The notes beneath the pieces were generated by a model. The model did not search any database. It worked only from the letters and a program-made list of their open reading frames with translations, and was not told the DNA's origin. Shown in pieces: positions 7,329-19,393 of a DNA stretch of 64,000 nucleotides (its first letter is position 1; every line of letters begins with the position of its first letter). The position numbers and the translations under genes were made by a program. Source of the DNA: Actinotalea alkalitolerans (GTDB lineage Bacteria; Actinomycetota; Actinomycetes; Actinomycetales; Cellulomonadaceae); NCBI RefSeq assembly GCF_023369855.1, contig NZ_JAMBPP010000006.1, positions 186,001 to 250,000 on the forward strand. Reading direction: 5' to 3'.

Positions 7329-7344
7329 GTGAAGCGCTTAGGGT
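7329..7344 (+). promoter_or_regulatory. LacI-type operator (O3) overlapping the -10 of the regulator gene
   Basis: GAAGCGCTTA at 7331-7340 matches 10 of 14 positions of the stronger operator O1 at 8609-8622. A TAGGGT -10 hexamer (7339-7344) overlaps it. Its position 25 bp before the LacI-family ATG implies autoregulation. Confidence 0.7.
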
Positions 7345-7368
7345 GAGTGCCGTCAGAGGGGAGGACCG

Positions 7369-8493
7369 ATGGCCAAGCGGCCCACCGTGTACGACGTCGC
7401 CCACGCGGCCGGCGTCTCGATCGCGACGGTCTCCTTCACCTTCCGGCAGCCCGAACGGGTGCGTGCCAGCACGCGCGAAGCGGTCCTCGAGGCTGCCCGG
7501 ACCCTCAACTACGTGCCGAGCGCAAGCGCCCGTGGCCTGGCCGAGAGCCGCACGGGGGCGCTCGGGCTGTACTCGTTCGACATGCTGCTCGAGTCGGGAG
7601 AGACCGGGGCGACCCGGCCGGTGCGCGAGGACCCGGGGGCCTTCTTCGCGGGTGACGTCACCGAGCGGGCCTTCTCCGACGACGCGGACGACGAGGACTT
7701 CCGCGTCTTCCCGCTGTACGTGGACGAGGTCCAGCGCGGCTTCGAGCTCGAGTGCGCCCGGCGCGGCAGGGCGCTGATGATCGGTCGCGGCCCCAGCGGC
7801 GACGGTGCCGGGGTGATCGACATCGCCAGCCGGGTGGACGGGCTCGCGGTGTTCCCCTGGGCCCGGTCCGAGGACGTGCTCGACCAGCTCGCCCACCGCC
7901 TGCCGGTGGTGGCGTTCGCGATGCCCTACGGGGCGGGTGCGTTGCACCACGTGCGGGTCGACAACGCGGGCGGGGTGCGGATCCTGACCGAGCACCTGGT
8001 GCGCGAGCACGGCATCACCCGGATCGAGTTCGTCGGGTCGCCCGAGATGAGCGACTACGCCGAGCGGTTCGAGGGGATGCGCGCCGCGCTGCGCGACCTC
8101 GGGCTGCCGGTGCCCCGGGAGGTGCTCGACCCGACGCCGATCGCCGCCGAGTCCCCGTTCCCGGTGATCCGTGACCTGCTCGACCGGGGAGAGGTCCCGC
8201 GCGGTCTGGTCTGCGCGAGCGACCAGCACGCGCTCGACCTGATGGCCCTGCTGCGCGACCGGGGGTGCGACGTGCCGGGCGACGTCGCCGTCACGGGCTT
8301 CGACGGTGTCGCCGCGGGGCGCCTGTTCGCTCCGTCCTTGACCACCGCCCGGCAGCCGATGGAGGCGATGGGCAGGCTCGCGGTGGACATCCTGATGGAC
8401 TCGATCGCCGACCCGGACGCGCCGCCGGTGGACCGCACGCTCCCTGTCCGTCCGCTGTTCCGCGAGTCCTGCGGGTGTCCTGCGAGGCGTTGA
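7369..8493 (+). CDS. LacI-family transcriptional regulator of the beta-glucan operon
   Basis: 374 residues. The N-terminal LacI HTH (TVYDVAHAAGVSIATVSFTF, residues 6-25) is followed by a hinge ending near residue 60 and a periplasmic-binding-like sensor domain (VDGLAVFPWARSEDV, CASDQHALDLMALL, VAVTGFDG), ending FRESCGC as many LacI proteins do. Between ~68 and 105 sits an acidic stretch (DVTERAFSDDADDEDFRVF) longer than is usual at that point. Good RBS (GGGGAGGA) before the ATG. Operator-like palindromes occur upstream of itself and of the transport operon, so it likely represses both until an oligosaccharide binds. Confidence 0.9.
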   Translation: MAKRPTVYDVAHAAGVSIATVSFTFRQPERVRASTREAVLEAARTLNYVPSASARGLAESRTGALGLYSFDMLLESGETGATRPVREDPGAFFAGDVTERAFSDDADDEDFRVFPLYVDEVQRGFELECARRGRALMIGRGPSGDGAGVIDIASRVDGLAVFPWARSEDVLDQLAHRLPVVAFAMPYGAGALHHVRVDNAGGVRILTEHLVREHGITRIEFVGSPEMSDYAERFEGMRAALRDLGLPVPREVLDPTPIAAESPFPVIRDLLDRGEVPRGLVCASDQHALDLMALLRDRGCDVPGDVAVTGFDGVAAGRLFAPSLTTARQPMEAMGRLAVDILMDSIADPDAPPVDRTLPVRPLFRESCGCPARR

Positions 8494-8501
8494 CGCGATC
8501 T

Positions 8502-8517
8502 GCGGCCCGTGGGCCGC
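8502..8517 (+). terminator. Short hairpin downstream of the LacI-family gene
   Basis: GCGGCCC (8502-8508) is repeated inverted at 8511-8517, 9 bp after the stop codon. It is probably a weak intrinsic terminator separating the regulator from the operon promoter. Confidence 0.35.
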
Positions 8518-8595
8518 TCCTGCCTCAGGAGGCTGCTGACCTGGGGAGACGCGCTGTGTCTCGCGCCGATCGACCCAGCAGGGTCCTGGGATGTG

Positions 8596-8653
8596 TTGCG
8601 CATCACGTTCTAAGCGCTTAGAGTCGACCGTGGGTGCACGTTAAGCGCATAGA
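8596..8653 (+). promoter_or_regulatory. Promoter of the beta-glucan operon with two LacI-type operators
   Basis: -35 TTGCGC (8596-8601), 17-bp spacer, -10 TAGAGT (8619-8624). Operator O1 is the perfect 14-bp palindrome TCTAAGCGCTTAGA (8609-8622), covering the spacer and -10. O2 (8640-8653, GTTAAGCGCATAGA) matches 11 of 14 positions and lies just past the expected start of transcription. The arrangement is that of a classical repressed promoter. Confidence 0.75.
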
Positions 8654-8696
8654 TGCGACTGCTCCCGAGCAGGGGACTCAACGAGGAGGACATGCC

Positions 8697-9959
8697 ATGA
8701 ACAGAACTGTGCGGGTAGGCGCTGCGGCGCTCGCGATCGCCGCTCTCGGACTCGCGGGCTGCGGGCGCGGTGACGCGGACACCGACGGCGGCGCGGCACC
8801 CGAGCCCGCCCAGGAGGTCGCCGAGGGTGAGGCCAGCGGGTCGATCGAGGTCTGGGCCATGGGAACCGAGGGTGAGGCGCTCGGAGCGTTCGCCGAGGCC
8901 TTCGTCGCCGAGAACCCCGAGGTCCAGGTCAACGTCACGGCGATCCCGTGGGACGCCGCGCACGACAAGATCGCGACAGCGATCGCCGGCGGGCAGACCC
9001 CCGACGTCTCCATGATCGGCACCACCTGGATGGGTGAGTTCGCCGCGACCGGCGCCCTGGACCCCACCCCCGAGCTCATCGACCCGTCGATCTTCTTCGA
9101 GGGCGCCTGGGGCAGCACCGACGTCGGCGGCACCCACTACGGCGTGCCGTGGTACGTCGAGACCCGGGTCCTGTACTACCGCAGCGACCTGGTGACCGAG
9201 CCTCCCGGCGACTGGGACGGACTGACCGCCATGGCCGTGCAGGCGCAGGAGGCAGGCGCCGACTGGGGTATCACCCTGCAGGCCGGGCAGACAGGTGCCT
9301 GGCAGACCTTCATGCCGTTCGCCTGGCAGGCCGGTGCGGAGATCCTCACCGAGGACGCCACCGAGTTCACGATCGACTCCCCGGAGTTCGTCGAGGCGCT
9401 GGCCTACTACCAGTCGGTCTTCACCGACGACCTGGCCCCCACCGAGCTGCCGCAGGGCTCGCTCGAGCCCGACTTCATGGCCGGTCGCATCGGCGCCTTC
9501 GTCTCGGGCCCCTGGCACGTCGGCATCCTGAACGACCTGGACGCCGCAGGAATGGAGAACGTCGCCCTGGCACCGCTCCCCGCGGGTGCCCAGCAGGCCT
9601 CGTTCATCGGCGGCGCCAACCTCGCCGTCTTCGAGGACACGGACAACCGTGACGCCGCCTGGAAGTTCGTCGAGTGGCTGAGCCGGCCCGAGGTCCAGGT
9701 CGACTGGTTCGAGACCGTCAACGACCTGCCCTCGGTGGCCTCCGCCTGGGACGACCCCGCGATCACCGACGACGAGAACCTCGCCGTCTTCGGACAGCAG
9801 CTCGAGACTGCCGTCGCCCCGCCCTCGATCCCGACCTGGGAAGAGGTCGCGAGCGTGATCGACAACGAGCTCGAGCGGCTCACCAAGACCGGTGCCGACC
9901 CGCAGGAGGTCGCGACCGCCATCCAGCAGCAGGCGGCCTCCATCGGGACCGGACTCTGA
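8697..9959 (+). CDS. ABC transporter sugar-binding lipoprotein
   Basis: 420 residues. The start at 8697 follows an AGGAGG-type RBS and gives a lipoprotein signal (RTVRVGAAALAIAALGLAGC), so the mature protein is lipid-anchored at its Cys after the LAGC lipobox. The remainder is a cluster B-type solute-binding protein (IEVWAMGTEGEALGAFAEAF; WETVNDLPSV-like C-terminus), which delivers oligosaccharides to the permeases encoded next. First gene of a tightly packed operon behind the LacI-controlled promoter. By analogy with sophorooligosaccharide loci, ligands may be beta-1,2-glucooligosaccharides; this is inferred from the downstream enzymes. Confidence 0.92.
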   Translation: MNRTVRVGAAALAIAALGLAGCGRGDADTDGGAAPEPAQEVAEGEASGSIEVWAMGTEGEALGAFAEAFVAENPEVQVNVTAIPWDAAHDKIATAIAGGQTPDVSMIGTTWMGEFAATGALDPTPELIDPSIFFEGAWGSTDVGGTHYGVPWYVETRVLYYRSDLVTEPPGDWDGLTAMAVQAQEAGADWGITLQAGQTGAWQTFMPFAWQAGAEILTEDATEFTIDSPEFVEALAYYQSVFTDDLAPTELPQGSLEPDFMAGRIGAFVSGPWHVGILNDLDAAGMENVALAPLPAGAQQASFIGGANLAVFEDTDNRDAAWKFVEWLSRPEVQVDWFETVNDLPSVASAWDDPAITDDENLAVFGQQLETAVAPPSIPTWEEVASVIDNELERLTKTGADPQEVATAIQQQAASIGTGL

Positions 9960-9960
9960 C

Positions 9961-10989
9961 ATGTCCACCCCGACCGTGGTCCGGTCCGGCGCGCAGGCGT
10001 CGGGCCGGACCGGCTCCCAGACGCTGCGCAAGCACCCCCCGCTCTACCGCCGCCGCACCCGTGCGGCCTGGGGCTTCGCGCTCCCGTTCGTGCTGCTCTT
10101 CGTCACGTTCACCGCCGGGCCGGTGCTGATGTCGCTGGGGATGGCCGTCACCGACATCAGGAGCCGGGACCTGCGCAACCCCTTCGCGGTCGAGTTCGTC
10201 GGCCTGGACAACTTCGTGACCGTGCTGCAGGACCCGCTGTTCCTCAAGGCCGCCGGCAACACCGCCTACTTCGTCCTGGTCGGCGTGCCGTTGACCCTGG
10301 GGCTCTCGCTGGGCATCGCGGTGATCCTCAACGCGGGCATCACCCGGTTCAAGACCCTGTTCCGGGTGGGCTACTACATGCCCGTGGTCACCAGCATCGT
10401 CGCGGTGGCCGTGGTGTGGCGGTTCCTGCTCCACCCCGACGCCGGGCTGATCAACGAGGTGCTCGGCTGGGTCGGCATCGACGGGCCGCACTGGCTCGCG
10501 AGCACCACCTGGGCCATGCCCTCGATGATCGCGATGGCCACCTGGCGGTCGATCGGGACCCTCATCATCATCTTCCTGGCCGGCCTGCAGGGGGTGCCCA
10601 CCTCGCTGCACGAGGCCGCAGCCCTCGACGGCGCCAACGCCTGGCAGCGGTTCCGGAACATCACCCTGCCCACGATGCGCCCGACGCTGCTGTTCGGCGC
10701 GGTGATCACCGGGATCGGCTACGTGCAGTTCTTCGAGGAGCCCTTCGTCATGACCCAGGGCGGTCCCCTCAACAGCACCCTGTCCGTCGCCTACCAGACG
10801 TACAACCAGTTCGGGTTCGGGAACTACGGCTACGCCGCCGCGATGAGCTACGTGCTGTTCCTCGCGGTCGTCATCCTGACCGTCATCCAGTTCCGGTTCC
10901 TCGGGGAGCGCGACACCCCGCGACGCCGACGCCTGTGGCGTCGTCGCCCCGCACCGACCGCCGTCGCCAGGCAGGAGATCGGACGATGA
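9961..10989 (+). CDS. ABC sugar permease, inner-membrane subunit 1 (MalF type)
   Basis: 342 residues with six expected membrane segments and the cytoplasmic EAA loop EAAALDGANAWQRFRNITLP that docks the ATPase. The start ATG lies one base after the binding-protein stop. It forms the channel with the next gene. No ATPase gene is encoded in the locus, so a shared MsiK-type ATPase elsewhere in the genome is presumably used, as is common for actinobacterial CUT1 systems. Confidence 0.92.
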   Translation: MSTPTVVRSGAQASGRTGSQTLRKHPPLYRRRTRAAWGFALPFVLLFVTFTAGPVLMSLGMAVTDIRSRDLRNPFAVEFVGLDNFVTVLQDPLFLKAAGNTAYFVLVGVPLTLGLSLGIAVILNAGITRFKTLFRVGYYMPVVTSIVAVAVVWRFLLHPDAGLINEVLGWVGIDGPHWLASTTWAMPSMIAMATWRSIGTLIIIFLAGLQGVPTSLHEAAALDGANAWQRFRNITLPTMRPTLLFGAVITGIGYVQFFEEPFVMTQGGPLNSTLSVAYQTYNQFGFGNYGYAAAMSYVLFLAVVILTVIQFRFLGERDTPRRRRLWRRRPAPTAVARQEIGR

Positions 10990-11894
10990 GCACCACGACC
11001 GGACGCACCCAGCCGCCACCCACCGAGCCGACGACCGACGCCCCCGTGCAGCACCGCACCAAGGAGCGGCCGATCGGCGAGGCCCGGCCCAACCCCTTCG
11101 CCTACCTGATCCTCGGCGTGGGCCTGATCGTGGTGATGAGCCCGTTCGCGTGGATGGCGCTCAGCTCGGTCAAGAGCGCCGGAGAGATCCGCCAGGTCCC
11201 GCCGACCTGGTGGCCGGAGGCGCCGACCCTGGACAACTTCACCGCGCTGTTCGAGCGGCTGGACTTCCCGCAGTTCTTCGCCAACTCGACCATCGTGGCC
11301 ACCGCGGTGACCCTGGGGAACCTGGTGTTCTGCTCGATGCTCGGCTACGTCCTGGCCAAGTCGGAGTTCGCCGGCAAGAAGCTGCTGTTCCGGCTCGTGC
11401 TCGGCACGCTGATGATCCCCGGGATGGTCACCCTGGTCCCGCTGTTCGTGATGGTCGCGAACATGGGCCTGGTCAACACCTACATGGGGCTGATCCTGCC
11501 GTTCCTGGCTGCACCGTTCGGCGTGTTCCTCATGCGGCAGTTCTTCCTCGGCATCCCCGACGAGCTGATCGACGCGGCGCGCGTGGACGGGGCGAGCGAG
11601 CTGCGGATCTTCCTGCAGATCGTCATGCCGCTGGCCAAGCCTGCCCTCGCGACGCTCGCGATCCTGACCTTCCTGGGGTCGTGGAACAACTTCCTGTGGC
11701 CGCTGGTCGTGGCGACCACCGAGGACAAGTACACCCTCCCGGTGGCCCTGGCCCTGTACTCCACCGGCCAGAACCAGACCGACTACGGGCTGCTGCTCGC
11801 CGGCGCCGTGGTGGTCGTCGTGCCCGTGCTGGTCGTCTTCCTGATCCTCCAGCGGTACTTCGTGCAGGGCGTCGCGATGACGGGCATCAAGTGA
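10986..11894 (+). CDS. ABC sugar permease, inner-membrane subunit 2 (MalG type)
   Basis: 302 residues; ATGA overlap with the previous gene. Contains the EAA loop DAARVDGASELRIFLQIVMP and the C-terminal tail RYFVQGVAMTGIK typical of CUT1 MalG-like subunits. The first ~35 residues are hydrophilic and Pro/Thr-rich. Partner of the preceding permease in oligosaccharide import. Confidence 0.92.
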   Translation: MSTTTGRTQPPPTEPTTDAPVQHRTKERPIGEARPNPFAYLILGVGLIVVMSPFAWMALSSVKSAGEIRQVPPTWWPEAPTLDNFTALFERLDFPQFFANSTIVATAVTLGNLVFCSMLGYVLAKSEFAGKKLLFRLVLGTLMIPGMVTLVPLFVMVANMGLVNTYMGLILPFLAAPFGVFLMRQFFLGIPDELIDAARVDGASELRIFLQIVMPLAKPALATLAILTFLGSWNNFLWPLVVATTEDKYTLPVALALYSTGQNQTDYGLLLAGAVVVVVPVLVVFLILQRYFVQGVAMTGIK

Positions 11895-14800
11895 CGGCGC
11901 AGCAGGTCGGCTCGGGCTCGGGGCTGCGCGCGGTCGTGGTCGACGGCGGCGGGCTGGCCTCGCTCGGGACCGGGTCGATCGAGCTGGTGCAGCACGCCGC
12001 GTCGGCCCTCGAGCCGGGGCTGCTCCAGCTGTGGGTCCGCGACCGAGCCGCCGGGACGTGCCACCCGCTGCTCGGTGCGGGGTCGGGCTCCCTGGCCACG
12101 GCGGGAGACGGCGAGCTCACCGTCACCGGCGGGGAGCAGGGGGTCGATGGCGGCGGCCTGCGCTGGCGGGCGACCCTCGCGCTGCACCCCGAGCAGCTCG
12201 CGTGGGCCTGGCACGTCGAGGTGTCGAACGACGGCCCGGGCCCCCGCGAGATCGACGTGGTGCACGCGCACGACGTCGCCCTGGCAGCACCCGGTGCCCT
12301 GCACGCCAACGAGCTCTACATCAGCCAGTACCTCGACGTGTCCCCGCTGGACGGTCCCACGGGGACGGCGCTCGCCGTGCGGCAGAACCTCCCGCAGGCC
12401 GGCACGCACCCCTGGTGCGTGCTGGCGGCCGACCCCGCGGTGACCTCGTGGGCCACCGACGCGCTCGACGTGCACGGCCGGACCGGCCGTTCAGGCCGTG
12501 GGACCGGTCCGGTCGGTGACCTGCCCGGTCGCCGGTGGCAGCACGAGCACACCCTGGCCACCCTCCAGACCCGCACCGCGACGCTCGCGCGGGGCGACCT
12601 GCTGGACGTCACGTTCGCCGGGCTGCTCCTCGAGGACCACCCCGGTGCGACCTCGCCCGACGACGTCGCGCTGGTCGAGCGGGCCCTCGCCCTCGCCCGT
12701 GAGACGCGCTCCGCGAGCCGTGACGGGGGCGACCCTGCGGCGCGCTCCGCGGCCCCCGCCCCCAGCGGCCCGTACGACCAGGGCCGTGAGCTGCGATCCG
12801 GTCCGCTCGGCCCGGACGAGCTGCGCGACCGCTGGCCCGAGCCGTGGCAGGTGGTCGAGCGCGACGAGGGCGGCGAGCTGCTGTCCTTCTTCGCCGGGGA
12901 CGAGCACGTGGTGACCCAGGCCAAGGAGCTCGACGTGCTCCGGCCGCACGGCACCCTGCTGCGCACGGGGGACCGCGCTGCGCCCGACGCCCACAGCCTG
13001 ACGGTCACCGCATGGATGGCCGGGTCACCGTTGTCGTACCTGACCCGCGGTCACGCCACCACCGGTCGGGTGCTGACCACGGTGCGTGGCTACCTCGGGA
13101 TGCACCGCGCCTACGGGCTGCGGGTCCTGGTCGAGGTCGACGGGCGCTGGCGGCTGCTCGACCTGCCCTCGGCCTTCGCGATGACCCCGGACTCCGCCCG
13201 CTGGGTCCACGTGGTCGCCCCGAGCGGTGGTGACGTGGGAGGCACCGTCGAGATGAGGACGGTGCTGCCGGCGGGTGGGCACCACGCCGAGCTGCAGGTG
13301 GACGTCGTCGGGCCGCCTCGCAGGGTGCTGGTGGCCCTCCACCTGGCCACTGAGCAGGACCCGCTCCCCGCGGCGGCGGACGCGGTGCGCACCTCGCCGA
13401 CCACCGAGGGGGTCGTGGTGCACGTGCGTGGCCCGGGCGACCTCGAGCAGGCCCTGGAGGTGCGGGCCACGGCCCCCGTCGAGGTCGGTGACGACAGCCC
13501 GCTCTTCGACGACGGCGTGCACCGGACCGACGCGGTGGTCACCCTCCTGACCCCACCGGTCCAGGCCCTCGGCCTCCGCCTGAGCCTGGGCGCAGCGCCT
13601 GACGGCGACATGGACTCGCAGTGGTGGCGCGAGGTCACCTCGATCCGGGTCGCGGGCGACGGCGAAGGGGTCGACACGCTCGCGGTGAGCCTTCCGTGGC
13701 TGGTCCGCGACGCCTTCGTCCACCACCTCGCGCCGCGCGGCCTCGAGCAGTACACCGGCGGCGCGTGGGGCACCCGAGACGTCACCCAGGGGCCGCTCGA
13801 GCTGCTGCTCGCCCTCGACCGGCTCGAGGACGCCCGACGGCTGCTGCTCTCGGTCTTCGCGGCGCAGAACCTCGACGGCTCGTGGCCCCAGGCCTTCGGC
13901 TTCCTGCCCGGCGACGAGCACTTCCGCCACGAGCCGCCGCACGGCGACGTCGTGCACTGGCCCGTCCTGGCCCTCGGGCGCTACCTGCTCGCCTCGGCCG
14001 ACGGCACGGTCCTGGACGAGCAGGTGCCCTGGTACACGCCCGCCGCCAGCGGCGAGCCGACCGCCGGTGGCGCGACCACGCTCGCCGACCACGTCGACCG
14101 TGCGCTGGCCTGCGCCCGGGCGGGGATGCTCCCCGGGACGCACCTGGTCGCCTACGGGCACGGTGACTGGAACGACTCCCTGCAGCCCGCCGACCCCGCC
14201 ATGGCGCGGACCATGGCCAGCGCGTGGACCGTCACCCTCCACCACCAGTCCCTGCGCACCCTCGCCGAGGGTCTGACCGCCGCGGGACGCCCGGCCGGCG
14301 CACCGGCCACTCTGCACGTCGAGGCGTTGCGTACCGAGGCCGAGGCGATCGCCGGGGACCTGCACCGCCACCTCCTGGTCGACGGCGAGCTCGCGGGCTA
14401 CGTCCAGCTCGGGGAGCCCGAGGGCGCGCACGTGCCCGTGCTCCGGCACCTCGTGCACCCCCGTGACTCGGCGACCGGACTGCGGCACGGTGCGCTGCAG
14501 ATCGTGCACGCGCTGGGCGACGACCTGCTCAGCCCCGAGCAGGCCCGTCACCACGTGGCCCTGGTGCGCGAGCACCTCATGGGCGTGGATGGCGTACGGC
14601 TCTTCGACCGGCCTCCCGGCTACCACGGCGGGGAGACCCGCCACTTCCAGCGGGCCGAGACCGCGACCTTCGTCGGGCGCGAGATCGGGCTGATGTACGT
14701 GCACGCCCACCTGCGGTGGTGCGAGGCGATGGCCCGCTGGGGCGACCCCGAGGCGCTGTGGCTCGGCGTCCGGCAGGTCCTCGCCCCCGGGGTGCTCGAC

Positions 14801-15274
14801 GTGGTGCCCGGCGCGAGGCGCCGGCAGGCGAACACCTACGCCTCGAGCTCGGACGCCGCGGTGCTCGACCGGGACGACTTCAGCGCGCGGTACGCCGAGG
14901 TCCTGACCGGGGCGACCGGTCTCGAGGGTGGGTGGCGGGTCTACTCCTCGGGCCCTGGGGTGCTCGTGCGGATCCTCACCCAGTCCCTGCTCGGCGTGCG
15001 CCGGCGTGGAGGTCAGGTCGAGATCGACCCGGTGCTGCCCCGCGCCCTGGACGGGCTGACGGCGAGCGTCCCGTTGGCCGGCGGTCACCTGCGGCTGCGC
15101 TACCGGGTGGGTCCTGGTGGCAGCGGGGTGACCTCGCTGCGGCTCGGCGACCGGGTGCTCACCGGTCCGCGCACGGCCAACCCGTACCGCGCGGGCGGGA
15201 CGGTCCTGGACCTGGCCGATCTCGCGGCCACGCTGCGCGGGGACGCGCCCGAGCTCGAGGTGCACCTGCCGTGA
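11891..15274 (+). CDS. GH94-family phosphorylase, probably 1,2-beta-oligoglucan phosphorylase-like
   Basis: 1127 residues, GTG start overlapping the permease stop. GH94 hallmarks are an N-terminal beta-sandwich and an (alpha/alpha)6 catalytic barrel carrying GDWNDSLQ at residues 758-765; the Asp of GDWND is the family's general acid. GH94 enzymes split beta-glucosides with phosphate, yielding glucose-1-phosphate. At ~1130 residues it is far longer than cellobiose phosphorylases (~820) and close to the 1,2-beta-oligoglucan phosphorylases. Those also lie beside a GH3 beta-glucosidase and a sugar ABC transporter, as here. No signal peptide, so it acts in the cytoplasm. The linkage specificity is inferred from length and context. 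Confidence 0.78.
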   Translation: MTAQQVGSGSGLRAVVVDGGGLASLGTGSIELVQHAASALEPGLLQLWVRDRAAGTCHPLLGAGSGSLATAGDGELTVTGGEQGVDGGGLRWRATLALHPEQLAWAWHVEVSNDGPGPREIDVVHAHDVALAAPGALHANELYISQYLDVSPLDGPTGTALAVRQNLPQAGTHPWCVLAADPAVTSWATDALDVHGRTGRSGRGTGPVGDLPGRRWQHEHTLATLQTRTATLARGDLLDVTFAGLLLEDHPGATSPDDVALVERALALARETRSASRDGGDPAARSAAPAPSGPYDQGRELRSGPLGPDELRDRWPEPWQVVERDEGGELLSFFAGDEHVVTQAKELDVLRPHGTLLRTGDRAAPDAHSLTVTAWMAGSPLSYLTRGHATTGRVLTTVRGYLGMHRAYGLRVLVEVDGRWRLLDLPSAFAMTPDSARWVHVVAPSGGDVGGTVEMRTVLPAGGHHAELQVDVVGPPRRVLVALHLATEQDPLPAAADAVRTSPTTEGVVVHVRGPGDLEQALEVRATAPVEVGDDSPLFDDGVHRTDAVVTLLTPPVQALGLRLSLGAAPDGDMDSQWWREVTSIRVAGDGEGVDTLAVSLPWLVRDAFVHHLAPRGLEQYTGGAWGTRDVTQGPLELLLALDRLEDARRLLLSVFAAQNLDGSWPQAFGFLPGDEHFRHEPPHGDVVHWPVLALGRYLLASADGTVLDEQVPWYTPAASGEPTAGGATTLADHVDRALACARAGMLPGTHLVAYGHGDWNDSLQPADPAMARTMASAWTVTLHHQSLRTLAEGLTAAGRPAGAPATLHVEALRTEAEAIAGDLHRHLLVDGELAGYVQLGEPEGAHVPVLRHLVHPRDSATGLRHGALQIVHALGDDLLSPEQARHHVALVREHLMGVDGVRLFDRPPGYHGGETRHFQRAETATFVGREIGLMYVHAHLRWCEAMARWGDPEALWLGVRQVLAPGVLDVVPGARRRQANTYASSSDAAVLDRDDFSARYAEVLTGATGLEGGWRVYSSGPGVLVRILTQSLLGVRRRGGQVEIDPVLPRALDGLTASVPLAGGHLRLRYRVGPGGSGVTSLRLGDRVLTGPRTANPYRAGGTVLDLADLAATLRGDAPELEVHLP

Positions 15275-17541
15275 CGGCCCACGACGTGACATCGCGGGTA
15301 CGTCCGTGGTCCGACCCCGACCTCCCGGTCGCCCGGCGGGCCGCTGCGCTGCTCGCGGCGATGACCCTCCAGGAGAAGGTCGGCCAGCTCCACCAGGTCG
15401 CCAACCCCGACCCGGAGCGGGACGCCGCGGCGCTCGCGGCGGGGACCTTCGGCACCTGCATCGTCGCGAGCGGGCAGCACGCCGGGAACGTCCGCGACAC
15501 CGGGACCCAGGCCACGGCGGTCAACGACCTGCAGCGTGCGGCGGTCCAGACCTCGCGGCTGGGCATCCCGCTGATCATCGCCCGGGACGTCATCCACGGG
15601 CACCGCACCGTGTTCCCCGTGCCGCTCGGGCAGGCGGCGTCCTTCGACGCCGAGCTGGTGCGTGACTGCGCACGGGTCGCCGCGCGTGAGGCCACGGCCG
15701 ACGGGGTGCGGTGGACCTTCGCCCCCATGCTCGACGTCGCGCAGGACCCTCGGTGGGGACGGGTCGCCGAGGGGTGGGGCGAGGACGTCTGGCTCGCCTC
15801 GCACCTGGGCGTGGCCGCGGTCGAGGGGTTCCAGGGCGGCCCGGACGGCGGCGACCTCGCCGCCCCCGAGGCGATGGCCGCGTGCGCCAAGCACTACGTG
15901 GGCTACGGCCTGGTCCAGGGCGGGCGCGACTACGCCGAGGTCGACATCGGCCCGATCACCCTGCACAACCGGCACCTGCGCCCGTTCCGGGCGGTCATCG
16001 ACGCGGGGGTGGCCACGGTCATGAGCGCCTTCCACACCCTGGACGCGGTACCGGTCACGGCGCACGTCGCGCTGCTGCGCGAGCACCTGCGCGACGACCT
16101 CGGCTTCACCGGACCGGTCGTCAGCGACTGGGGGGCCGTGGGAGAGCTGCGGCACCACGGGATGGCTGCTGACGACGGAGGTGCGGCCGTGCTCGCCCTG
16201 CGTGCGGGAGTCGACATCGACATGGTCACCGGTGCCTACAGCGGGCACCTGGCGAGGCTGGTCGGCGACGGCGTGGTCGACGAGGCCCTCGTGGACGAGG
16301 CGGTGCTGCGCGTGCTGACCCTCAAGCTGCGGCTCGGCCTCTTCGAGGACCCGTACACCGACCCGTCCCGGGCAGCCGCCGTCCACCTCACCCCCGAGCA
16401 CCGCGGGCTGGCCCGGCGCGCGGCGGCCTCGGCGGTCGTGGTGCTGCGCAACGACGGCGTCCTGCCTCTCGAGGCACCGCCCCGCCACGTGCACGTCACC
16501 GGGCCGTTCGCGACCGCCACCGGCGAGCTCTTCGGGACCTGGACCCTCGACGGTCGCGCCGAGGACGTCGTGAGCATCGCTGCCGCCGTCTCCGAGCGCT
16601 TCGAGGGGACGGCGCACCAGGACAGGCCCACCCGCGTGACGGTCGACGACGGCCGGTTCCCCGACGAGTCCCACCTGCGGGCGCGGGAGGCCGACGTGGT
16701 GATCGCCTGCGTGGGGGAGCACCCCCTGCGCAGCGGCGAGGCCAACTCGGTGGCCTCCCTCGACCTCCCGCCCGGGCAGGTCGAGCACCTCGAGGCCCTG
16801 GCCCGGGTGAGCCGCCGGCTGGTTGTGGTGGTGCTGACCGGGCGACCGCTCGCCCTCGAGCGGCTCGCGCACCTCGGCTCGGCGCTCGTGCTGGTCTTCC
16901 ACCCCGGCGTCGAGGGTGGCCACGGTGTGGTCGACGTGCTCAGCGGTGACGCCCCGGCGAGCGGTCGACTGCCCTCCTCGCTGCCCTGGACCACCGGTCA
17001 GGTCCCGCTGCACCACGACCACCTGCCGACCGGCAGGCCGCTGCACCCCGACGGTCCCGAGGGCCGCTATCGCGACCACCGCGACACCGCGCAGTACCCG
17101 TTCGGCTTCGGTCTGGGCTACTCGCCGGTGACGTACACCGACCTCGTGCTCTCGGCGACCGTGCTCGGTCCGGGTGAGGTGGTCCGGGCCAGCGTGCGGG
17201 TGACCAACGTGGGGACCCGCCCCGTCGTGGAGACCGTCCAGCTCTACGCGCGGGCGCACGTCTCGACCATCTCCCGGCCGGTCAGCGAGCTGGTCGGGGT
17301 GCGCCGGGTGGTGCTCGCCCCGGGCGAGCAGCAGGAGGTCGGGTTCGAGATCGACCAGCACGTGCTCTCCCATCGGGACGCCCTCGGCCGAGAACGTCGT
17401 GAGCCGGGCCCGTTCACCCTCCGGATCGCCCCGTACGCGGGGGCCGGGGTGACGGCACGGCTCGACGTCGTCTCCTCGCCTGCACGCACCGGCACCACCG
17501 GGGAGGGAGGTGGCGCCCGGCTCGACCCCATCGACCGATGA
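15271..17541 (+). CDS. GH3 beta-glucosidase (BglX type)
   Basis: 756 residues, GTG start overlapping the phosphorylase stop. Domains: GH3 N-terminal barrel (MTLQEKVGQLHQV; RDVIHGHRTVFPVPLGQ; KHYVGYG), catalytic nucleophile Asp286 in VVSDWGAV, C-terminal alpha/beta domain (VGEHPLRSGEANSVASLDLP) and Fn3-like domain (VRVTNVGTRPVVETVQLYAR). No secretion signal. It should hydrolyse short beta-glucosides in the cytoplasm, probably sophorose-type disaccharides left by the phosphorylase; that substrate is inferred from the operon. It is a different gene from the truncated GH3 at the start of the window. Confidence 0.9.
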   Translation: MTAHDVTSRVRPWSDPDLPVARRAAALLAAMTLQEKVGQLHQVANPDPERDAAALAAGTFGTCIVASGQHAGNVRDTGTQATAVNDLQRAAVQTSRLGIPLIIARDVIHGHRTVFPVPLGQAASFDAELVRDCARVAAREATADGVRWTFAPMLDVAQDPRWGRVAEGWGEDVWLASHLGVAAVEGFQGGPDGGDLAAPEAMAACAKHYVGYGLVQGGRDYAEVDIGPITLHNRHLRPFRAVIDAGVATVMSAFHTLDAVPVTAHVALLREHLRDDLGFTGPVVSDWGAVGELRHHGMAADDGGAAVLALRAGVDIDMVTGAYSGHLARLVGDGVVDEALVDEAVLRVLTLKLRLGLFEDPYTDPSRAAAVHLTPEHRGLARRAAASAVVVLRNDGVLPLEAPPRHVHVTGPFATATGELFGTWTLDGRAEDVVSIAAAVSERFEGTAHQDRPTRVTVDDGRFPDESHLRAREADVVIACVGEHPLRSGEANSVASLDLPPGQVEHLEALARVSRRLVVVVLTGRPLALERLAHLGSALVLVFHPGVEGGHGVVDVLSGDAPASGRLPSSLPWTTGQVPLHHDHLPTGRPLHPDGPEGRYRDHRDTAQYPFGFGLGYSPVTYTDLVLSATVLGPGEVVRASVRVTNVGTRPVVETVQLYARAHVSTISRPVSELVGVRRVVLAPGEQQEVGFEIDQHVLSHRDALGRERREPGPFTLRIAPYAGAGVTARLDVVSSPARTGTTGEGGGARLDPIDR

Positions 17542-17566
17542 CGTTCGACGAAAGGACTCGAGACAG

Positions 17567-19153
17567 ATGAGTGGGATGCGCAGACGCACGGCCGCGATCG
17601 CGGTCGCAGCACTGGCCACAACAGGTCTGGTGACCACGGCGGCCCCCGCGGTCTCCGGACCGCACCAGGACCGCGGCGGCAAGCACCAGGACCGAGGGCC
17701 CCATGACGGGGGCAAGCGCGGCGACCGCGCCGTCCTGACCGAGTACGCCGAGGACACCTGGGCCTCGTTCGAGGCGATGGCCCACCCGGACACGGGCCTG
17801 CCGGCCGACAACATCGACGGCGACCTCGACCCGGGCTCGCGGAGCGGCTACACGTCGCCGACCAACATCGGCGCCTACCTCTGGAGCACCGTGGTCGCCC
17901 GTGACCTGGGGATCATCAAGCGGGGCGAGGCCAAGCAGCGGATGGCCCAGACCCTCGCGAGCGTCGCCGAGCTCGAGCGCCACGAGGACTCGGGCATGTT
18001 CTACAACTGGTACGACGAGGCCACCGGGGAGAAGCTCTACGTCTGGCCGGACGACGGCAACCAGGTGTACCCCTTCCTGTCGAGCGTCGACAACGGGTGG
18101 CTGGCCACCGCGCTCGTCCTGGTCAAGAACGCCGAGCCGCGCCTCGCGGCGCAGGCCGAGGCGATCCGCTCGACCATGGACTTCGGCTTCTACTACGACC
18201 CGCCGGTCGGTCAGATCCGCGGCGGGTTCTGGGACGAGCCGCCGGCCGACCCCGCCGCGGTGCTCGACAACTACCGTGACCGGGGTCCCGACGTCTGGTA
18301 CACCGGCCACCACTACGGCACGCTCAACACCGAGCCGCGCATCGCGAGCTACCTGGGCATCGCGTGGGGCCAGATCCCGCCCGAGCACTACTTCCACATG
18401 TTCCGCACCTTCCCCGACACCTGCGACTGGAGCTGGCCCGAGCAGAAGCCGGTCGGCGAGTGGGAGCAGCACCTGGGTGTCGACGTCTTCCAGGGGGCCT
18501 ACCGCTACCGCGACATGCAGATCGTGCCGACCTGGGGCGGCTCGATGTTCGAGGCGCTCATGGTCGACCTGTTCATCCCCGAGTCCGACTGGGGTCCGCG
18601 CAGCTGGGGTGTCAACCACCCGCTGACCGTCCGGGCCCACATCGAGCACGGCATGGACGAGGCCGGCTACGGGTACTGGGGCTTCTCGCCGTCGAGCGAC
18701 CCGGCCGGTGGCTACCGCGAGTACGGTGTCGACCCGATCGGCATGGAGCCCAACGGGTACTCCTCCGACCAGGAGCGCACCGTCGTGGAGTCCGGCTGGG
18801 ACGACCCGGAGTGCTTCCGCGAGGCCAGCGAGCCCGAGGGGTACGGCGACGGCGTGGTGACGCCGCACGCGTCCTTCCTCGCGCTGCCGTACGACAAGGG
18901 CGCGGCGCTGACCAACCTCGCGAACATCCGTGACGACTTCGACGCGTACGGCCCCGGTGGCTTCTACGACGCGGTCGCGGTCGGCAGCGGGACGGTCGCC
19001 GAGCGGTACCTCTCCCTCGACCAGGGGATGATCATGGCCGCGCTGGGGAACGAGCTCAAGAACGACCGCGTGAAGTCCTACGTGGTCCGTGGTGACGTCA
19101 AGCGCGTCATCCGGCCGCTGCTGGGCATCGAGGAGTTCAACGCGGGCAGCTAG
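17567..19153 (+). CDS. Secreted glucoamylase-like hydrolase, GH144-type (candidate endo-beta-1,2-glucanase)
   Basis: 528 residues. ATG at 17567 has AAAGGA ten bases upstream; an earlier in-frame ATG lacks an RBS. A secretion signal (MRRRTAAIAVAALATTGLVT) ends around APAVSG. The rest is an alpha-helical toroid of the glucoamylase-like family (PF10091): WGFSPSSDPAGGYREYG, TPHASFLALPYDKGAALTNL, YGPGGFYDAV and LSLDQGMIMAALGNEL are its usual landmarks. Family GH144 in this group comprises endo-beta-1,2-glucanases and a sophorohydrolase. It is last in the operon, 25 bp after the GH3 gene. Secretion plus intracellular phosphorylase and glucosidase fits depolymerisation of extracellular beta-1,2-glucan. 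Other PF10091 specificities are not excluded. Confidence 0.72.
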   Translation: MSGMRRRTAAIAVAALATTGLVTTAAPAVSGPHQDRGGKHQDRGPHDGGKRGDRAVLTEYAEDTWASFEAMAHPDTGLPADNIDGDLDPGSRSGYTSPTNIGAYLWSTVVARDLGIIKRGEAKQRMAQTLASVAELERHEDSGMFYNWYDEATGEKLYVWPDDGNQVYPFLSSVDNGWLATALVLVKNAEPRLAAQAEAIRSTMDFGFYYDPPVGQIRGGFWDEPPADPAAVLDNYRDRGPDVWYTGHHYGTLNTEPRIASYLGIAWGQIPPEHYFHMFRTFPDTCDWSWPEQKPVGEWEQHLGVDVFQGAYRYRDMQIVPTWGGSMFEALMVDLFIPESDWGPRSWGVNHPLTVRAHIEHGMDEAGYGYWGFSPSSDPAGGYREYGVDPIGMEPNGYSSDQERTVVESGWDDPECFREASEPEGYGDGVVTPHASFLALPYDKGAALTNLANIRDDFDAYGPGGFYDAVAVGSGTVAERYLSLDQGMIMAALGNELKNDRVKSYVVRGDVKRVIRPLLGIEEFNAGS

Positions 19154-19160
19154 GGCATCG

Positions 19161-19218
19161 CCGTGGACGAGCGGGGAGCGCCACGGGAGACCGTGGGTCG
19201 CTCCCCGCTCGTCCGCGG
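19161..19218 (+). terminator. Very strong hairpin at the end of the beta-glucan operon
   Basis: Arms 19161-19180 and 19199-19218 pair over 20 bp (16 perfect plus one G-U and three more pairs). Continuing inward, CCACGG (19181-19186) pairs with CCGTGG (19191-19196) around a GAGA loop. It begins 7 bp after the GH144-type stop codon and also abuts a minus-strand gene remnant, so it could stop transcription from both sides. Confidence 0.8.
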
Positions 19219-19393
19219 TCAGCGGCGCGTGGGCCAGTCGAGGGATCCGGTCGAGGCACGGGTGACCACCCGGCCGGCGAGCTGCTCGACCCCGACCGAG
19301 GGGTCTCCGCGATCAACGCGAAGAGGCGTGGTGCCGCGATCCGTCCTCTGCCGCACGAGAGCAGGTGCTCGACTCTGGATGCCGACGGCGTGA
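19219..19393 (-). pseudogene. Possible 3' remnant of a LacI-type regulator
   Basis: Reading the minus strand gives an open stretch of about 57 codons ending in a stop at 19219-19221. Its end (VEQLAGRVVTRASTG, then SLDWPTRR) resembles the usual close of LacI-family proteins (P.RLVVRASTG). Upstream residues do not continue the LacI fold and no start is evident, so it would be a decayed fragment. The rest of the 336-bp gap to 19490 holds the operon terminator and a TAGCGT -10 box. Confidence 0.35.

What the first reader, a model, noticed from the sequence alone, without database searches (positions are those of the whole stretch)
7329..19218. A complete candidate beta-1,2-glucan utilisation operon in a Gram-positive actinobacterium
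Seen: LacI regulator, lipoprotein binding protein, two permeases, GH94 (1127 residues), GH3 and a secreted glucoamylase-like hydrolase, tightly packed with three start/stop overlaps and closed by a 26-bp hairpin. Known: GH94 1,2-beta-oligoglucan phosphorylases lie beside GH3 glucosidases and ABC transporters in Listeria, and GH144 endo-beta-1,2-glucanases belong to the glucoamylase-like fold. Inferred: extracellular cleavage of beta-1,2-glucan, import of sophorooligosaccharides, phosphorolysis and final hydrolysis. A locus that also encodes the endoglucanase would be a self-sufficient pathway.
Basis: partly seen in the sequence, partly recalled or inferred. Interest (0 to 1): 0.75.

Follow-up and report, generated by a model that had tools for sequence, protein, structure and literature searches.

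The report
Operon for eating beta-1,2-glucan
A relative of the soil bacterium Actinotalea carries, in one block of seven genes, a likely kit for cutting, importing and digesting the rare sugar polymer beta-1,2-glucan; each part resembles an already studied enzyme or transporter, and similar kits are known from other bacteria.

Summary
The seven genes are present as described, with three 4-bp start/stop overlaps and a strong closing hairpin, and the beta-1,2-glucan reading holds. [quoted passage not shown] The binding protein is closest to Listeria Lin1841. The GH3 keeps five of five checked Lin1840 residues. The secreted enzyme is GH193, not GH144 or GH162: 58% identical to Sanguibacter keddieii SkSGL, with both proposed catalytic residues. 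The transporter ATPase is not in the operon. The seven-gene order recurs in 6 further genomes, with conserved operator-like palindromes. Known precedents: Listeria (LacI, SOGP, GH3, ABC), Streptomyces griseus (ABC, GH1, GH193) and Ignavibacterium album (GH144, SOGP, ABC binding protein). The window is the actinobacterial GH193 + SOGP + GH3 form, not found in print in my searches. Side finding: of 80 related GH193 loci, 35 have a GH39 gene nearby, 22 GH1 and 5 GH94+GH3, which suggests exchangeable cassettes and an undescribed GH39 role. Ordinary in kind, well supported: interest 0.28.

The parts
7331..7340 (.). operator-like palindrome GAAGCGCTTA upstream of lacI (1 mismatch to TAAGCGCTTA)
   Evidence: 38 bp before the lacI start; present within 2 mismatches in 5 of the 6 full loci examined, window included (L019 lacks it)
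7369..8493 (+). LacI-family regulator, 374 aa
   Evidence: LacI 1.8e-14, Peripla_BP_3 1.6e-29
8611..8620 (.). operator-like palindrome, perfect TAAGCGCTTA (CTAAGCGCTTAG), upstream of the SBP gene
   Evidence: CTAAGCGCTTAG occurs at one place in the 4.37 Mb genome within 1 mismatch
8642..8651 (.). second operator-like site TAAGCGCATA, 31 bp from the first
   Evidence: the pair recurs in 5 other loci (L018, L020, L021, L022, L034) with spacing 27-33 bp; L019 has one site only
8697..9959 (+). lipoprotein substrate-binding protein of an ABC importer, predicted sophorooligosaccharide binder
   Evidence: SBP_bac_1 3e-42; best solved relative Lin1841 (5ysb), 223 bits; lipobox LAGC read by eye
9961..10989 (+). 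ABC permease 1
   Evidence: BPD_transp_1 2e-16
10986..11894 (+). ABC permease 2, overlaps permease 1 by 4 bp
   Evidence: BPD_transp_1 9e-23
11891..15274 (+). [quoted passage not shown]
   Evidence: SOGP_N 4e-42; LpSOGP 5h3z 403 bits; catalytic acid at D762
15271..17541 (+). GH3 beta-glucosidase of the Lin1840 kind, 756 aa, GTG start, no signal peptide seen by eye
   Evidence: D286, W287, E490, R589, Y600 match Lin1840 D270, W271, E473, R572, Y583
17567..19153 (+). secreted GH193 endo-beta-1,2-glucanase, 528 aa, signal-peptide-like N-terminus read by eye
   Evidence: 58% identical to SkSGL; E256 and D175 match its proposed acid E246 and base D160
19160..19219 (+). closing hairpin, 27 base pairs with a 2-nt bulge, no U-run
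   Evidence: -62 kcal/mol, z -8.1

Best explanation
This is a LacI-controlled catabolic operon for beta-1,2-glucan. The secreted GH193 enzyme cuts exogenous beta-1,2-glucan into sophorooligosaccharides (SkSGL yields Sop4-8). The lipoprotein and two permeases import them, powered by an ATPase encoded elsewhere. In the cytosol the GH94 SOGP phosphorolyses chains of three or more glucoses to glucose 1-phosphate, saving ATP, and leaves sophorose. The GH3 enzyme splits sophorose to glucose. The LacI protein represses its own gene and the operon through palindromic TAAGCGCTTA-like sites until an oligosaccharide inducer arrives. Shown here: gene content, order and overlaps, family kinship, conserved residues, conserved synteny and operator-like sites. 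Inferred: substrate, inducer, cell location (read from the N-termini by eye), direction of phosphorolysis, repression, and the identity of the ATPase.
For: GH94: among PDB chains at E up to 0.01 only five sequences match: LpSOGP (E 2.7e-119, stretches 56-440 and 597-1106) and four cellobiose phosphorylases at 19.7 bits or less. Of 15 LpSOGP pocket residues named in PMC5309861, 14 are identical, including catalytic acid D760 and the R907/Y141 pair; the exception, G623 to Thr, varies among homologues. SBP: best of 511 matches is Lin1841, reported to bind Sop3-5 (PMC12369401). GH3: JMB19063, 5tf0 and Lin1840 are the top matches, 462 to 446 bits, and five of five checked Lin1840 residues including R572 are conserved. 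SGL: 58% identity to SkSGL, 538 bits; D kept in 85 of 85 and E in 84 of 85 rows; the 20 top Foldseek hits are beta-1,2-glucanases, CGS chains or Bacteroides 'putative glucoamylases'. Synteny in 6 further genomes. SOGP_N and GH193 co-occur in 15 of 297 genomes, 23 and 38 having each, about 3 expected. Operators: 3 of the 8 genome sites within 1 mismatch lie in this 1.3 kb; the reversed control pattern gives 4 sites.
Against: No activity, binding or growth was measured. The ATPase is not in the operon (two OB_MalK ATPases elsewhere, neither shown to serve it). By sequence search the solved proteins nearest the secreted enzyme are cyclic glucan synthases, no GH193 structure having appeared among the hits. 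NCBIfam names neither the GH94 nor the secreted protein, and its best model for the SBP is GanS, a galactooligosaccharide binder, at 101 bits, far under its cut-off of 700. The hairpin lacks a U-run. No residue-level test of the binding protein was made. The AlphaFold model has stretches under pLDDT 50, chiefly 330-369.
Confidence: 0.9

Rival explanations
1. The secreted enzyme is a beta-1,2-glucan transglycosylase or cyclase of the GH189 kind rather than a hydrolase, so the operon remodels or makes glucan.
For: Its best solved relatives by sequence and by fold are cyclic glucan synthase chains.
Against: 58% identity to SkSGL, which hydrolyses beta-1,2-glucan with inversion (PMC12102758); no glucan synthase gene among the seven; an importer, a phosphorylase and a glucosidase accompany it.
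Confidence: 0.04
2. The true substrates are short sophorosides or mixed beta-1,2/1,3-glucosides, and polymeric beta-1,2-glucan is incidental.
For: Lin1840 also splits laminaribiose rapidly (PMC4757417).
Against: SkSGL shows no detected activity on laminarin, lichenan, pustulan or the other polymers tested with it (xylan was not tested; Table 1 of PMC12102758); SOGP acts on DP 3 or more and not on sophorose (PMC4757417 passage).
Confidence: 0.06

Closest known systems
Listeria innocua lin1838-lin1843 locus (LacI, SOGP Lin1839, GH3 Lin1840, ABC proteins Lin1841-1843; PMC3960220, one passage)
   Same: LacI regulator, SOGP, sophorose-splitting GH3, sophorooligosaccharide-binding protein and ABC importer genes.
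   Different: The passage read names no endo-beta-1,2-glucanase in that cluster; the window adds a secreted GH193 enzyme and is in an actinobacterium.
Ignavibacterium album SGL gene cluster (PMC8861115, passages)
   Same: A published cluster that already joins endo-beta-1,2-glucanases, an SOGP homologue and a Sopn-binding ABC protein, with extracellular cutting and import proposed.
   Different: Its endoglucanases are GH144; it also has GH35 IaSGT and a proposed TonB-dependent step. One passage lists a putative GH3 beta-glucosidase, a later one says there is no beta-glucosidase homologue in the cluster.
Streptomyces griseus SGR_2422-2427 locus (ABC, GH1 beta-glucosidase, GH193; PMC12369401)
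   Same: Actinobacterial cluster joining a Lin1841-like importer to a GH193 endoglucanase.
   Different: Uses a hydrolytic GH1; the window has the GH94 + GH3 pair instead.
SkSGL of Sanguibacter keddieii (the GH193 enzyme characterised in PMC12102758)
   Same: 58% identity over the catalytic domain and the same proposed acid and base residues.
   Different: SkSGL has an extra C-terminal Ig-like domain; in G036, taken to be S. keddieii, the SOGP_N gene found lies about 1.6 Mb away on the chromosome.
LpSOGP of Lachnoclostridium phytofermentans (PDB 5H3Z; PMC5309861, passages)
   Same: N-terminal SOGP domain, long similarity, 14 of 15 mapped pocket residues.
   Different: G623 of subsite +2 is Thr in the window.

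Membership tests
[quoted passage not shown]
   SOGP_N 4.3e-42, residues 18-235, over cut-off
[quoted passage not shown]
   14 of 15 identical, mapped by hand; exception G623 to T622, a position that holds T, S, G, N or I in the homologues found
[quoted passage not shown]
   403 bits to LpSOGP against at most 19.7 to cellobiose phosphorylases, no other GH94 chain at E up to 0.01; a search, not a tree
[quoted passage not shown]
   needs enzyme assay
GH193 | Sequence kinship to SkSGL | tested here: met
   58% over 480 columns, 538 bits; SkSGL lies inside the quick tree of these proteins (no GH144/GH189 outgroup)
GH193 | Proposed general acid E246 and base D160 of SkSGL | tested here: met
   E256 and D175 of the window protein; E in 84 of 85, D in 85 of 85 rows
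GH193 | Inverting endo-hydrolysis of beta-1,2-glucan | not testable with these tools
   needs enzyme assay
GH144 (considered, rejected) | Closest kinship to CpSGL | tested here: not met
   phmmer 23.8 bits to CpSGL 5gzh and 23.7 to 5gzk against 538 bits (blastp) to SkSGL
GH189 (considered, rejected) | Long helix 5 and extra helices between helices 4 and 5 | tested here: inconclusive
   475-residue domain modelled against 574 residues in 8wy1; helices not compared one by one
Lin1840-type GH3 beta-glucosidase | D270, W271, E473, R572, Y583 | tested here: met
   D286, W287, E490, R589, Y600
Lin1841-type binding protein | Ligand-contact residues | not tested
   only overall similarity, 223 bits, best of 511 matches

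The most novel reading that the evidence does not exclude
Many actinobacterial GH193 loci are built from a common core (Lin1841-like importer plus secreted endo-beta-1,2-glucanase) and an exchangeable intracellular cassette: phosphorolytic GH94+GH3 (window), hydrolytic GH1 (published), or a GH39-family enzyme. If so, the GH39 cassette holds an undescribed beta-1,2-glucooligosaccharide-degrading specificity in GH39, and the GH94 cassette has been gained or lost at least three times on the GH193 tree.
Probability: 0.5. Interest if true: 0.5.

Novelty: new member of a known kind. Interest (0 to 1): 0.28.

Why it matters
Beta-1,2-glucans are signals and osmolytes of rhizobia, Brucella and other bacteria, and few consumers are characterised. 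This locus predicts that some Actinotalea and relatives eat them by a phosphorolytic route with their own secreted GH193 endoglucanase, and it gives enzymes, operator sites and growth phenotypes to test. The survey around it makes a concrete prediction that GH39 enzymes act on beta-1,2-glucooligosaccharides in many actinobacteria.

Tried and rejected
GH144/GH162 assignment of the secreted enzyme: rejected, GH193 fits far better. GH189 cyclase: unlikely. Wider LacI regulon: CTAAGCGCTTAG occurs nowhere else in the genome within 1 mismatch; the other perfect TAAGCGCTTA (C22:40180) has different flanks, ACGTAAGCGCTTACGT, and was read as another regulator's site by eye only; the C17 and C30 stretches were fetched but not examined, and two C3 sites were not fetched. 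The VIA-align second look was not available. Abe 2017 on GH144 is not held and was not read. A paper on Curtobacterium that the search listed for 'oligoglucan phosphorylase' turned out to name an alpha-linked enzyme. A careful tree, outgroups from GH144/GH189 and a GH94 tree with Listeria were not made: no such sequences were on hand.

Rows dropped and things not examined: the tree left out L040 (short) and L072 (stops in the match). Of 23 SOGP_N genomes, 22 neighbourhoods were looked at and G173 was not. In that tree L152 bears the GH94 label for a GH94 gene about 9 kb away on the other strand with a weak (30%) GH3; L147, L079 and L088 bear the GH1 label although a GH94 gene is also near.

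A wrong naming of 5tf0 as BT_3567 was taken out.
Full report
WHAT IS THERE. The window lies on contig C32 of a 4.37 Mb genome in 35 contigs. By matching contig lengths, four genus-mates are the records titled Actinotalea fermentans, A. subterranea, A. solisilvae and Cellulomonas sp. APG4, so the host is Actinotalea or close to it. Seven + strand genes run from 7369 to 19153 with three 4-bp overlaps, a 1-bp gap and a 25-bp gap. The block ends in a hairpin of -62 kcal/mol (z -8.1) without a U-run.

THE PHOSPHORYLASE. Pfam finds SOGP_N and SOGP_2nd over their cut-offs; the general GH94 catalytic model is under its own. Against PDB chains at E up to 0.01 five sequences match: LpSOGP at 403 bits in two stretches, then cellobiose phosphorylases at 19.7 bits or less. 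From passages of PMC5309861 I listed 15 pocket residues and mapped them through the printed alignment by hand, with a one-residue numbering offset that fits R630/D631, W758 and D760. Fourteen are identical (N140, Y143, Q620, A625, R629, D630, W760, D762, R921, R930, E931, Y936, Y1018, S1019 in window numbering; for positions). G623 is Thr; across the GH94 relatives found this place holds T, S, G, N or I.

THE GLUCOSIDASE AND THE IMPORTER. The GH3 protein's best solved relatives are JMB19063, an unnamed GH3 protein (5tf0) and Lin1840. The nucleophile, the acid/base and the three subsite +1 residues of Lin1840 named in PMC4757417 (passages) are all five present. The binding protein's best match among 511 is Lin1841; NCBIfam's best, GanS, is far under its cut-off. 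No ATPase gene is among the seven. Two ATPases with an OB_MalK domain lie on other contigs; calling them MsiK-like is my reading.

THE SECRETED ENZYME. Its N-terminus reads as a signal peptide by eye. Genome G036 has one contig of 4,253,413 bp, the size of S. keddieii ST-74 (PMC3035225, passages). Counting back from residue 724, its GH193-like protein has D at 160 and E at 246, as PMC12102758 states for SkSGL (read: Results, Discussion part 1, section 4.2, passages; residue check). The window protein is 58% identical to it over 480 columns, and D is kept in 85 of 85 and E in 84 of 85 rows. AlphaFold2 gives pLDDT 80, pTM 0.87. The 20 best Foldseek hits are beta-1,2-glucanases, CGS chains and Bacteroides 'putative glucoamylases'; sugar isomerases and epimerases follow.

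SYNTENY AND REGULATION. In 59 genomes searched with the secreted enzyme, own included, 15 match; 6 of 19 genomes of the genus, own included, have it, so it is a patchy trait. All seven genes in the same order are present in the window, in L018-L022 (L019 is from another genus, the record titled Cellulomonas fimi SB) and in L034. G013 is cut by a contig end. TAAGCGCTTA within 1 mismatch occurs at 8 places in the genome, 3 of them in this 1.3 kb, against 4 for the reversed control (chance expectation in the window 0.07). Of the 6 full loci, window included, 5 have the site before lacI (within 2 mismatches; L019 lacks it). The tandem pair before the SBP gene is in 5 of those 6 and in L034; L019 has one site.

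HOW COMMON THE COMBINATION IS. In the same 297 genomes of the order, own included, SOGP_N occurs in 23, GH193 in 38, both in 15; Fisher p is 6e-10, not a true probability because genomes are related. In 7 of these 15 the two genes lie within about 20 kb; in 8 they do not. L153 has the same seven components in the order LacI-SBP-permease-permease-GH193-GH94-GH3 (GH94 52%, GH3 65%).

CASSETTES. Among the best 80 of 585 GH193-like loci with names, a GH39 gene lies within 7 kb in 35, GH1 in 22 (2 of these also with GH94), GH94+GH3 in 5, GH3 at a contig edge in 1, and none of them in 17, of which 6 are short of flank. With a stricter cut, GH39 is found in 34 loci; 31 of 35 matches lie within 500 bp of GH193, median gap 36 bp, 34 of 35 on the same strand. 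On a quick tree of 85 GH193 proteins the GH94 label (10 rows) needs three changes, and starred branches force three; gains and losses cannot be told apart. One of the three rests on L159 (GH94 37%, GH3 29%, adjacent) and the weak L152. Results against a neat picture: loci without a cassette, and loci with both GH1 and GH94.

WHAT IS IN PRINT. The Listeria cluster (PMC3960220, one passage) and the S. griseus cluster (PMC12369401: Introduction, Discussion part 1 and passages) are known. So is an Ignavibacterium album cluster with two GH144 enzymes, an SOGP homologue and a Sopn-binding protein (PMC8861115, passages); its text both lists a GH3 beta-glucosidase and later denies a beta-glucosidase homologue. 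A search for GH193 gave 3 papers, one of which looks unrelated by its title (listing). GH39 with sophorose and glucan gave 5, with no GH39 sophorose enzyme evident from the listing; in the one checked, GH39 appears only in a reference title. Actinotalea with GH94 gave 3 (listing only). I found no report of SOGP, GH3 and GH193 in one operon in these searches (listings of 17, 18 and 78 are capped); subscription papers are mostly not covered, and supplementary files were not read.

VERDICT. The finding is real and its reading is right in substance. Each part belongs to a known family and the pathway is what those families predict. What is new is modest: the GH193 + SOGP + GH3 form in one actinobacterial operon, its operator-like sites, and the cassette pattern around it.

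Noticed in passing
L103:11485-13356, L053:11430-13226 and 33 other loci: A GH39-family gene (PF01229; nearest solved relatives are beta-xylosidases, about 240 bits) lies near GH193 in 35 of 80 named loci, in most within 500 bp. Both catalytic Glu positions (recalled from XynB) align in L053. It is a candidate new beta-1,2-glucooligosaccharide enzyme.
   Followed up: partly
L103:13361-14947; also L091, L097, L099, L100, L106, L108, L112: A GH13 alpha-amylase-family gene follows the GH39 gene in some loci; its role beside beta-1,2-glucan genes is unexplained.
   Followed up: no
L153:3677-15465 (G255): Same seven components as the window but with GH94-GH3 after GH193 instead of before it.
   Followed up: partly
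L022:3250-5402: About 2.1 kb of extra sequence between lacI and the SBP gene, where the other five full loci have about 150-210 bp.
   Followed up: no
L079 and L088 (Cellulosimicrobium funkei): GH193, a divergent importer-GH1 block and a divergent GH94 (36-37% to the window's) stand close together.
   Followed up: no
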